Assembly (NCBI RefSeq): GCF_020171785.1
Contig: NZ_JAIVAE010000001.1
Span: forward strand, 1 to 64,000
Direction of reading: 5' to 3'
Source of the DNA: Guptibacillus hwajinpoensis
Lineage (GTDB): Bacteria > Bacillota > Bacilli > Bacillales > Guptibacillaceae
Length of the DNA: 64,000 nt
Position 1 is the first letter of the stretch, and the number at the start of each line of letters is the position of its first letter. Under the pieces are notes generated by a model. That model was not told the DNA's origin and did not search any database. It saw only the letters and a list, made by a program, of their open reading frames with translations. This document shows positions 14,920-18,066 of the stretch, piece by piece. Position numbers and translations under genes: made by a program.

Positions 14920-14943
14920 GGGGTCAGGCTCGTGCCTGACCCC
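14920..14943. repeat. REP-like palindrome, copy E
   Basis: GGGGTCAGGC, then TCGT, then GCCTGACCCC (24 nt, one central mismatch region). It is the last copy in the window; I find none downstream of 15 kb. Confidence 0.85.
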
Positions 14944-15012: not shown

Positions 15013-15378
15013 ATGAAACTTGTGAAAACCTTGTTCATTCTATTGGTTGCCGCTTTACTAACTGGCTGTGGAAATATGGTAGAGAAGGGCGCTAACTCAT
15101 TAAGTCAAAATTCGGAGCAAACGAGTCGAGAAACAGAAGCCGAGAGTGATTTTTCTCCCCAGATTAAGATAATCGCAAACGATGAGAAAATCATAGAAAT
15201 GCTGAAGGAGTCAGGCGAGATCCCGAAGAATGCTAGTGCTGCAGAAATCCAAGAGGTGTTAGAAGAATATTTGAAGAAAAAAGCCAAATCTGCAGAGATC
15301 GATGATAAATCAAGTGAAAAATATATCGAGGATTTGAAAAAGGAAATTCAGAAAGATCTTCATGGAGAAACCAATTAA
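15013..15378 (+). CDS. Lipoprotein carrying an InhA-propeptide-like domain
   Basis: A 121-residue lipoprotein. Signal peptide MKLVKTLFILLVAALLTGC has lipobox LTGC with the lipidated Cys at 19. A Ser/Glu-rich linker follows, then residues ~53-94 closely match residues ~53-94 of the protease encoded next. Shared stretches are IAN-EK-IEMLKESG, KNASA and LKKK. By hand alignment 25 of 42 positions are identical. A charged helical tail ends the protein. ATG 15013 has GGAAGGAG 9 bases upstream. It has its own terminator before the protease gene, so it is a neighbour and not necessarily in one operon. I infer a membrane-tethered propeptide mimic acting on the InhA-type protease as inhibitor, immunity factor or folding helper; function is unproven. 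Confidence 0.82.
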   Translation: MKLVKTLFILLVAALLTGCGNMVEKGANSLSQNSEQTSRETEAESDFSPQIKIIANDEKIIEMLKESGEIPKNASAAEIQEVLEEYLKKKAKSAEIDDKSSEKYIEDLKKEIQKDLHGETN

Positions 15379-15396
15379 TATTCCCCCATAATAAAC

Positions 15397-15439
15397 AAAA
15401 AAACAAGGCGCAGCGATTTTCGTTGAGCCTTGTTTTTTT
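15397..15439 (+). terminator. Intrinsic terminator between the lipoprotein and protease genes
   Basis: AACAAGGCGCAGCG and CGTTGAGCCTTGTT pair with two non-Watson-Crick positions, flanked by an A-run and a T7 run. Confidence 0.88.
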
Positions 15440-15486
15440 GAGTTTAATGTGTCGAAGCGTTATCGCAAAAAAAATAATATTAGTGA

Positions 15487-15511
15487 CATAGTTCGATACT
15501 TTAGAACTATG
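15487..15511. promoter_or_regulatory. Inverted repeat in the protease promoter region
   Basis: CATAGTTC and GAACTATG are exact 8-base arms around 9 bases (15487-15494 and 15504-15511), about 165 bases upstream of the inhA start in an AT-rich gap. It is a candidate operator for a growth-phase regulator. 15440-15672 contains no gene. Confidence 0.4.
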
Positions 15512-15672
15512 ACTTTTGGTTGGTGATTGTCATTTTTCTAGTAAAATACGTTTATTTTAGCAGTAATTGCCGAAGATTGTGACTTTTGAATCATTCAAAT
15601 TTTTCAGATAAAGGGATATAGTGAGATCATTGTAAAGTTATTGTAAAAAACATTTTTAGGGGGAATGAGAAA

Positions 15673-18066
15673 TTGAAGGGGAAAAACGTATTGTCAATGG
15701 CAATGATCGCCGCGTTAACGCTAAGTGCATTTTCAACACCTAGCGCAAGCGCAGCGGTCCAAGCTGACACAACTCCAGTCAAACAAGAGGTGAAGAAAGA
15801 ATCAGTACATAAGGAAGGACCATTTGATCTCGCGATTGCAAATGAAGAGAAATTGATTGAGATGCTGAAAGAATCCGGTAAAATCTCAAAGAATGCCTCA
15901 GCAGAGGATGCCGAACAAGCATTACAAAGTTTTCTAAAAAAGAAATCAGAATCGCTTCAAGAAAAAGATTCTAGCGGTGAGTTAGAAGATGAAAAGCTTG
16001 AAGTTGAAGCTGATATTAAAGAAAAATTAAAGAATGGCAACAAAGATAAAGCGAAAGGGAACTATAGTAACGGCGGTAAAAACCTTGCCCCGGTCGTTGA
16101 GGAAGAATATGACGGAGACGTTCGATCGGATAACGTCCTTGTTCTTCTCGTTGAATTTCCAGACTTTCCTCATAACAGTATCCAGCCGGAAGAATCTGAT
16201 ATGTACTACGAGGATTATGTGAAAGAACATTACCAAGATATGATCTTCGGTGAAGACGGATATGAAGGGCCTAATGGCGAAAATCTCGTTTCCATGAAGC
16301 AATTCTATGAAGAGCAAACCGATGGTGCTTATACCGTGAATGGTGAAGTTGCTGGTTGGTACATGGCATCTAAAAACGCTGCTGAATACGGTGGGAACTA
16401 CCCTACTGTTGAAGATAGTGATAAGAACGCACGTGGACTTGTGAAGGAAGCTCTTACGGCAGCTGCTCAAGATCCAAATGTGAATCTTGAAGACTATGAT
16501 CAGGAAGATCGTTATGACCTCGATGGCGACGGAGATTTCCGTGAGCCGGACGGTTTGGTGGACCACTTAATGGTTGTTCACTCGGCTGTTGGGGAAGAAG
16601 CAGGCGGAGGTCAACTTGGACCTGACGCAATCTGGTCTCACCGTTGGAATCTTGGAGGAATATTCCCAATCGAAGGATCTCCAGAACCGGAAGTCGATTA
16701 CTGGGGTGAAGGTTCCATGTATGCGTACGACTACACAATCGAGCCTGCTGATGGCGCTGCTGGAGTATTTGCGCATGAGTATGGTCACGATCTAGGATTA
16801 CCTGATGAGTACGATACACAGTATTCAGGTGAAGGAGAAGCCGTCTCTTACTGGTCGATTATGGCTAGCGGTAGCTGGGCAGGTAAGATCCCAGGAACGG
16901 AACCAACTGGTTTTAGTGCATGGTCGAAGGAGTTTCTACAAGCTTCTCAAGATGGAAACTGGTTGAAGTATGACGAAGTAGATTTAGAGGACATTGATAA
17001 AAAAGGTTTAGAAGTTTACCTTGATCAGGCAAATACGAAAGGGACCAACCTTGATGCGCTTCGTATTAACCTGCCAGATAAAGAAACGGTCATTAACGAA
17101 CCATTCAGTGGAGATTATGAGTATTTCAGTGGAAGTGACAATGATCTCGACAACTCAGCTGTGATGAATGTCGATCTCTCAAATGCTGCTTCTGCAGAGC
17201 TAACGTTCAAAACATGGTATGACATTGAAGAAGACTGGGATTATGGTTCGATTCAAGTGAGTGAAGATGGAGAGAATTGGAGTACAATCCCTGGTAACAT
17301 TACAACACAAACGAACCCGCACGATAGTAATCCAGGTGATGGCATTACGGGTAAATCAGATGGATGGATTGATGCGTCATTTGGCTTAAGTGCTTATGCT
17401 GGTAAAGATATTCAGGTGAAAATCAATTACTGGACGGATGCTGCGGCAATTAACCCTGGTTTCTATGTGGATGATGTTCGCGTAACGGCGGATGGCGAAG
17501 AAATTTTCTTTGATGATGCAGAAGGCGAACCGAAAGTGGAGCTTGATGGCTTTACAAAGAATACAGGGGTAAAAGTTTCCGAGCATTATTACCTGCTTGA
17601 GTGGAGAAACCATCAGGGTGTTGATGAAGGACTGGGTCACATTAGTCGTGGTGACAGTCTCATGTCTTACGATCCAGGTCTAGTGGTGTGGTATGCTGAT
17701 AATAAGTATTCCGATAACTGGACTGGTTTCCATCCTGGGGAAGGTTTCCTTGGCGTAGTCGATGCCGATCAGCATGAACTTTACTGGAGTGATGGAACTG
17801 TAGCGCAAACGCGTTATCAAATCCATGATGCAGCGTTCAGTCTCCGTAAAGATGAAAAAATGTTCATTGACTACAGTAATATTAATGGACGCACGATGAC
17901 AGATAAGAAAAATCAATTCGTTAAGTTCTTTAACGATCATGAAAGCTATTTGAATGAAGCGGTACCGGATGCAGGAAGAAATGTTCCTGAATATGGCCTT
18001 CAATTTAAAGTAACTGGTGAAGCAACAGATCGTTCTGTTGGGCGCGTATCGATTACAAAAAAATAA
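15673..18066 (+). CDS. inhA: Immune inhibitor A-type M6 metalloprotease
   Basis: A 797-residue secreted zinc protease that degrades proteins outside the cell; in the B. cereus group InhA cleaves antibacterial peptides and host proteins. Start TTG 15673 follows AGGGGG. A signal peptide ends near ASAA (~28). The propeptide covers ~45-140 and includes IANEEKLIEMLKESG, repeated in the upstream lipoprotein. The peptidase domain has the zinc motif HEYGHDLGLPDEY, with H368, E369 and H372 as ligands/catalytic base, and the conserved SIMASGSW beyond. The C-terminal ~350 residues hold a carbohydrate-binding-like/MAM-like beta domain (SAELTFKTWYDIEEDWDYG…) and a final region with YDPGLVVWY, both usual for InhA. 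Length matches the family (~790-800). Confidence 0.95.
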   Translation: MKGKNVLSMAMIAALTLSAFSTPSASAAVQADTTPVKQEVKKESVHKEGPFDLAIANEEKLIEMLKESGKISKNASAEDAEQALQSFLKKKSESLQEKDSSGELEDEKLEVEADIKEKLKNGNKDKAKGNYSNGGKNLAPVVEEEYDGDVRSDNVLVLLVEFPDFPHNSIQPEESDMYYEDYVKEHYQDMIFGEDGYEGPNGENLVSMKQFYEEQTDGAYTVNGEVAGWYMASKNAAEYGGNYPTVEDSDKNARGLVKEALTAAAQDPNVNLEDYDQEDRYDLDGDGDFREPDGLVDHLMVVHSAVGEEAGGGQLGPDAIWSHRWNLGGIFPIEGSPEPEVDYWGEGSMYAYDYTIEPADGAAGVFAHEYGHDLGLPDEYDTQYSGEGEAVSYWSIMASGSWAGKIPGTEPTGFSAWSKEFLQASQDGNWLKYDEVDLEDIDKKGLEVYLDQANTKGTNLDALRINLPDKETVINEPFSGDYEYFSGSDNDLDNSAVMNVDLSNAASAELTFKTWYDIEEDWDYGSIQVSEDGENWSTIPGNITTQTNPHDSNPGDGITGKSDGWIDASFGLSAYAGKDIQVKINYWTDAAAINPGFYVDDVRVTADGEEIFFDDAEGEPKVELDGFTKNTGVKVSEHYYLLEWRNHQGVDEGLGHISRGDSLMSYDPGLVVWYADNKYSDNWTGFHPGEGFLGVVDADQHELYWSDGTVAQTRYQIHDAAFSLRKDEKMFIDYSNINGRTMTDKKNQFVKFFNDHESYLNEAVPDAGRNVPEYGLQFKVTGEATDRSVGRVSITKK

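What the first reader, a model, noticed from the sequence alone, without database searches (positions are those of the whole stretch)
15013..18066. Free-standing propeptide-like lipoprotein next to an InhA protease
Seen: residues ~53-94 of the 121-residue lipoprotein align without gaps with residues ~53-94 of the adjacent protease; by hand 25 of 42 are identical (IAN-EK-IEMLKESG, KNASA, LKKK). Known: InhA-type M6 enzymes are secreted as precursors, and stand-alone propeptide domains act as inhibitors or chaperones in other protease families. Inference: the lipoprotein is a membrane-tethered inhibitor, immunity protein or folding helper for its own protease, arisen by partial gene duplication. 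I know of no described case for InhA.
Basis: partly seen in the sequence, partly recalled or inferred. Interest (0 to 1): 0.78.

Follow-up and report, generated by a model that had tools for sequence, protein, structure and literature searches.

The report
Lipoprotein copy of protease propeptide domain
A small protein predicted to be anchored to the bacterial membrane carries a copy of the removable leader segment of a secreted protease whose gene lies beside it, and probably docks onto that protease to control it at the cell surface; the pairing recurs in several genera, but its effect has not been tested here.

Summary
The 121-aa lipoprotein (15013-15378) and the InhA propeptide share a domain (33/63 identical; 25/42 ungapped with a one-residue offset, 14.5 sd above shuffles). 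It is not a recent local duplicate but a lipoprotein family listed in 38 of 397 genomes of the order, in five genera. All 38 also carry an InhA-type protease; no copy was found in the 228 genomes without one. In 25 of 38 it lies directly beside InhA: upstream in the window's genus and one other, downstream in a third. In 13 of 38 it is not beside the main InhA. In the window's genus 12 genomes have both genes, 2 neither. The domain is under purifying selection; the linker much less so. All 39 lipoprotein rows lack the P-F-D-like segment that precedes the propeptide helices in 45 of 48 InhA proteins. Most likely it is a membrane-tethered propeptide mimic that docks on InhA in trans as an immunity or latency factor. 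A folding helper or a surface tether is not excluded. Function is untested. New variant of a known kind.

The parts
15013..15378 (+). propeptide-domain lipoprotein gene (121 aa, ATG start)
   Evidence: found in 11 of the 13 other genomes of the genus searched
15013..15069 (+). lipoprotein signal peptide with lipobox LTG-C (Cys19)
   Evidence: sequence; a Cys lies 25-63 residues before the domain in all 38 intact homologues
15070..15168 (+). weakly conserved linker
   Evidence: pLDDT under 50 at residues 25-32 and 34-44; linker dN/dS above domain dN/dS in 11 of 11 pairs
15169..15363 (+). propeptide-like domain: predicted helices at residues 58-67, 76-90 and 102-117
15398..15438 (+). hairpin with T run between the two genes (terminator-like)
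   Evidence: MFE -22.3 kcal/mol, z -6.0; scan
15673..18066 (+). InhA-type M6 metalloprotease gene (797 aa, TTG start)
15817..15831 (+). GPFDL segment of the InhA propeptide; no counterpart in the lipoprotein
15832..16047 (+). helical part of the InhA propeptide (homologous region; helices 58-68, 77-101, 103-125 in a low-confidence model)
16105..16965 (+). M6 catalytic domain of InhA, with HEYGHD (zinc-site motif, so named from recall)
   Evidence: PF05547 match

Best explanation
The lipoprotein is a membrane-tethered, stand-alone copy of the helical docking part of the InhA propeptide. It works in trans: after export, Cys19 is lipidated and the flexible linker holds the helical domain at the outer face of the membrane, where it binds the InhA catalytic domain at the place the cis propeptide uses. 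Because the cis propeptide is lost on maturation, a permanent copy at the membrane would keep newly matured or returning InhA non-productive next to the cell's own surface proteins: an immunity or latency factor. Shown: homology, conservation, co-occurrence, repeated adjacency, lipobox, selection. Inferred: that it is lipidated, that it binds InhA, that it binds at the propeptide site, and that the effect is inhibitory.
For: Homology far above chance, extending to the solved N-terminal domain 5abk (listed as a metalloprotease; PrtV by recall; profile E 2.6e-8) and weakly to the InhA chain 4yu5 (E 0.005). All 38 listed carriers among 397 genomes have the InhA VEG domain; among the 228 without it only G197 and G369 had any match, and these were unrelated on inspection; by genus 5 of 51 against 0 of 84, p 0.007. 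In the window's genus 12 genomes have both genes and 2 neither. Direct neighbours on one strand in 25 of 38, upstream in two genera and downstream in a third. The InhA of G130 and G388 (another family, with lipoprotein) group with those of the window's genus (98/93), not with their congeners G065 and G102, in which no lipoprotein was found: the pair appears to have been inherited or moved together (the gap is small, 79-80% against 76-77% identity in the rows printed). Domain dN/dS 0.03-0.18 in 10 of 11 pairs. Precedent: SUB1-ProM, a stand-alone propeptide-like protein beside protease genes, is a potent inhibitor (PMC6993865, passages read).
Against: All 39 lipoprotein rows (38 intact, one broken) lack the P-F-D-like segment found in 45 of 48 InhA propeptides, perhaps the cleft-facing part, so it may dock without blocking. 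In 13 of 38 genomes the gene is not beside the main InhA. 131 of 169 InhA genomes had no listed intact copy. In genus g28 it occurs with two distinct InhA types, and genomes with either type can lack it. Terminator-like hairpins separate the genes in the window and in L049, so co-expression is not assured. One domain pair had dN/dS 0.42. Foldseek found no significant fold match. No interaction was tested.
Confidence: 0.42

Rival explanations
1. Trans-acting folding helper: the tethered propeptide domain helps newly exported InhA fold at the membrane-wall interface, as propeptides act as intramolecular chaperones in other proteases.
For: Propeptide homology; predicted position at the outer membrane face; the missing segment may not be needed for such a role.
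Against: Each of the 25 InhA proteins next to a lipoprotein keeps its own cis propeptide domain, so a second copy looks redundant; 131 of 169 InhA genomes had no listed intact copy.
Confidence: 0.22
2. Tether: the lipoprotein binds InhA through the docking helices without blocking the cleft, and keeps active protease on the cell surface.
For: Helices kept, P-F-D-like segment absent in all 39 rows; lipobox cysteine with a 25-63 residue spacer in all 38 intact copies.
Against: No direct evidence either way; whether the mature catalytic domain would hold a free propeptide domain is unknown.
Confidence: 0.17
3. The domain is a helical module now used for something unrelated to InhA, and co-occurrence reflects shared ancestry only.
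For: 13 of 38 copies are not beside the main InhA, including a syntenic site elsewhere in genus g28.
Against: No copy found in 228 InhA-less genomes; joint presence or absence within the window's genus; adjacency in two different arrangements.
Confidence: 0.12

Closest known systems
N-terminal propeptide domain of M6 proteases (5abk, PrtV by recall; InhA 4yu5/4yu6)
   Same: Sequence-homologous domain; same helix order in predictions for the window's pair
   Different: Here it is a separate lipoprotein without protease domain and without the P-F-D-like segment
Stand-alone propeptide-like inhibitors of subtilases (MEROPS I9; SUB1-ProM, TgMIC5; PMC6993865, passages read)
   Same: Small separate protein resembling a protease's propeptide; for SUB1-ProM the gene lies beside protease genes
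   Different: Different protease family and fold; the examples in the passages are eukaryotic; inhibition shown there, not here
SpeB-Spi and staphopain-staphostatin pairs; staphostatin-like inhibitors of Bacteroides C10 proteases (PMC3462683, passages read)
   Same: Bacterial protease gene with a small neighbouring inhibitor gene; BtiA and either BtiB or BtiZ (the paper's sections differ) predicted lipoproteins
   Different: Cysteine proteases; the passages describe the Bacteroides proteins as staphostatin-like, not propeptide-like; Spi's likeness to the SpeB propeptide is recalled
PepSY/FTP propeptide domains of M4 proteases, also found in lipoproteins (recalled; only a search listing seen)
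   Same: A propeptide-derived domain reused outside the protease
   Different: Different fold and protease family (recalled)

Membership tests
M6 / InhA peptidases | M6 catalytic domain | tested here: not met
   No Peptidase_M6 match in the lipoprotein
M6 propeptide domain family | significant sequence homology to M6 propeptide domains | tested here: met
M6 propeptide domain family | P-F-D-like segment before helix 1 | tested here: not met
   pattern [GSATEV][PSTA][FIVL]D, chosen after seeing sequences: 0 of 39 lipoprotein rows; 44 of 48 InhA, 45 counting L027 by eye
Stand-alone propeptide-like protease regulators | separate small gene product without protease domain | tested here: met
Stand-alone propeptide-like protease regulators | genetic association with the cognate protease | tested here: met
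   25 of 38 adjacent; 38 of 38 co-occurring
Stand-alone propeptide-like protease regulators | inhibits the cognate protease | not testable with these tools
   no assay, no complex prediction available
Bacterial lipoproteins | N-terminal hydrophobic stretch and lipobox cysteine | tested here: met
   deviating boxes such as GYGC and MMGC occur; lipidation itself untested
Any Pfam or NCBIfam family | match over curated cut-off | tested here: not met

The most novel reading that the evidence does not exclude
An undescribed family of lipoproteins made of the M6 propeptide's docking helices without the segment that precedes them, which captures a secreted InhA protease at the membrane and travels with it as a cassette: the first trans-acting propeptide partner for M6 proteases.
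Probability: 0.4. Interest if true: 0.68.

Novelty: new variant of a known kind. Interest (0 to 1): 0.52.

Why it matters
How bacteria that secrete broad-specificity InhA proteases spare their own surface is, as far as I know, open. A lipid-anchored propeptide mimic would give a testable answer, extend propeptide-derived regulators to the M6 family, and offer a natural binding partner for these proteases.

Tried and rejected
Chance or composition: rejected. Recent local duplication: not supported (only 45 columns, supports weak, one long-branch InhA falls among the lipoproteins). Stand-alone copies in InhA-less genomes: of 157 genomes with a match only G197 and G369 lack the VEG domain; the G197 frame reads by eye as a LytTR-like regulator, and the G369 place showed no propeptide-like protein. 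Hits of about 380-400 aa in the phylum search: three of these (L111-L113) are DnaJ-like by eye and were dropped, as was L107 (same gene as L027); the others were not looked at. G1086, a 213-aa frame in the class search, is the N-terminal part of an InhA whose catalytic part lies in another frame, with no lipobox, so not counted. Plasmids and phages: no match. Foldseek against PDB: nothing at E 0.001 or better. Structure of InhA: mean pLDDT 58.8, used only for helix positions. One search's third locus (L037, a Bacteroidales record) matched only residues 1-45, outside the domain, and was not counted.

Limits: at most 15 candidates per genome were scored and rows were listed only down to E 1.3e-10, so 38 is a lower bound; but no genome other than G197, G239 and G369 had more matches than its InhA copies plus its listed lipoprotein. 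Of 21 non-carriers with two or more matches, two (G040, G082) were looked at in full and G239 holds the broken copy.

Literature: no paper describing a stand-alone InhA propeptide lipoprotein was seen in the listings of searches of the open-access library (listings are capped; subscription papers are mostly not held).

Full report
What is there. The window holds a 121-aa lipoprotein gene (15013-15378) and, after a gap of 294 bp on the same strand, a 797-aa InhA-type M6 protease (TTG 15673 to 18066) with M6, MAM and VEG domains. The lipoprotein has a lipobox (LTG-C19), a linker and a helical domain (helices 58-67, 76-90, 102-117). Mean pLDDT is 67; by blocks of ten it is 83-90 over residues 51-90, 56 over 91-100, 82 and 73 over 101-120, and 43-61 before residue 51. 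A terminator-like hairpin separates the genes (15398-15438, z -6.0), so they are probably separate transcripts. Two named records with relatives of the lipoprotein are Bacillus sp. RAR_GA_16 and Pseudalkalibacillus hwajinpoensis, whose contig lengths equal those of G004 and G006 of the window's genus; the taxonomy now calls the second Guptibacillus hwajinpoensis.

Check of the similarity. BLASTP gives 33/63 identities and E 3e-15 for the pair. The ungapped count of 25/42 is right with an offset of one residue; against 1000 shuffles of the mature lipoprotein the score is 14.5 sd above the mean. A profile of 12 lipoprotein domains finds 5abk (a metalloprotease N-terminal domain, PrtV by recall) at E 2.6e-8 and the InhA chain 4yu5 at E 0.005. 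Foldseek with the model found nothing significant, so the shared fold rests on sequence. In a low-confidence InhA model the propeptide helices fall at 58-68, 77-101 and 103-125, in the same order.

Distribution. Of 397 genomes drawn from the order, 38 have a listed intact short-frame copy: 12 in the window's genus, 11 in genus g47, 2 in g50, 12 in g28, 1 in g8 (G181, whose match stops at position 51 of 69, so the third helix is not covered). A 39th, in G239 (g28), is broken. All 38 are among the 169 genomes with the InhA VEG domain; of the other 228, only G197 and G369 had any match, both unrelated on inspection. At genus level this is 5 of 51 against 0 of 84 (p 0.007), a fairer figure than the genome-level one because relatives are not independent. 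Among 398 genomes drawn from the phylum (E up to 0.01) the window's was the only stand-alone copy seen; among 398 from the class (E up to 1e-5) the window's and that of G059, apart from the two-frame InhA of G1086. Within the window's genus 12 of 14 genomes have both genes; G003 and G011 have no lipoprotein and no VEG-bearing InhA, only a distant M6, and there the neighbouring regulator is followed by other genes.

Gene order. The lipoprotein is directly upstream of InhA in the window's genus (12 of 12) and in the two g50 carriers, and directly downstream in g47 (11 of 11), on the same strand (21 of 26 loci re-measured, one of them the broken copy in G239). In g28 (12) and G181 (1) it lies elsewhere than the main InhA; in G281, one of these, a second, divergent InhA lies close by, with one predicted ORF between.

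History. On a tree of 45 domain columns (87 rows) the 39 lipoprotein rows and 48 InhA propeptides separate but for one long-branch InhA from outside the class; one origin of the lipoproteins is not rejected (AU p 0.39), but supports are weak (71/99 on the dividing branch; 28% of bootstrap trees with a clean split). On the InhA tree of 43 rows (propeptide left out) the InhA of G130 and G388 (g50, with lipoprotein) join the 12 of the window's genus (98/93), while their congeners G065 and G102, without it even at E 1, stand outside; identities are 79-80% against 76-77% in the rows printed. The pair thus seems to be inherited or transferred together. Against a tight coupling, in g28 the lipoprotein occurs with two distinct InhA types, and G216 (one type) and G040 and G082 (the other) lack it.

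Selection and motif. Across 11 non-independent pairs the domain's dN/dS is 0.03-0.18 in 10 and 0.42 in one (some dS values are saturated); the third-helix stretch is 0.06-0.32 in 9, 0.93 in one and not computable in one; the linker's is higher than the domain's in all 11 (0.20-0.86); whole InhA is 0.04-0.08. A P-F-D-like segment just before helix 1 (pattern [GSATEV][PSTA][FIVL]D, set after looking at the sequences) is found in 44 of 48 InhA propeptides and in 0 of 39 lipoprotein rows; a 45th InhA, L027, has PFD after a residue my pattern left out, and the other three misses come from outside the class. From recall of the InhA zymogen structure paper (not held), the N-terminal segment of the propeptide occupies the active-site cleft; if so, the lipoprotein keeps the docking helices and drops the plug.

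Mechanism. I favour a tethered propeptide mimic that holds InhA non-productive near the membrane after its own propeptide is gone. A folding helper and a tether are live rivals; the lost segment favours docking over plugging. No binding or activity was tested.

Comparison. Stand-alone propeptide-like protease inhibitors are known for subtilases, one of them beside protease genes (PMC6993865, passages), and protease-inhibitor gene pairs, some with predicted lipoprotein inhibitors, for bacterial cysteine proteases (PMC3462683, passages). PrtV, an M6 protease, is found in forms that start at residue 106 (PMC2613228, passages), which fits removal of such a domain. I saw no description of a stand-alone M6 propeptide protein in the listings of searches. 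Hence a new variant of a known kind.

Noticed in passing
window 14922-14941, also 1125, 2655, 3290, 7520: A REP-like palindrome GGTCAGGC-N4-GCCTGACC occurs 5 times in the window with up to 2 mismatches (0 expected) and exactly at 20 places in the genome; one copy lies about 70 bp upstream of the lipoprotein gene.
   Followed up: partly
L092 5172-5640 (G239): A broken lipoprotein-like remnant without signal peptide lies directly upstream of InhA in a genome of g28, a genus whose listed intact copies are not beside the main InhA.
   Followed up: partly
L125-L130, L133-L136 (genus g28): Two distinct InhA types occupy the same chromosomal site between the same neighbours in different species of one genus, which suggests allele replacement.
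   Followed up: partly
L145 385-2840 (G1086): InhA reads in two overlapping frames, the N-terminal part apart from the catalytic part; sequencing error or a disrupted gene.
   Followed up: no
L094, L095, L124: The zinc-site motif reads HEYAHD instead of HEYGHD in the InhA of three of the four g50 loci fetched.
   Followed up: no
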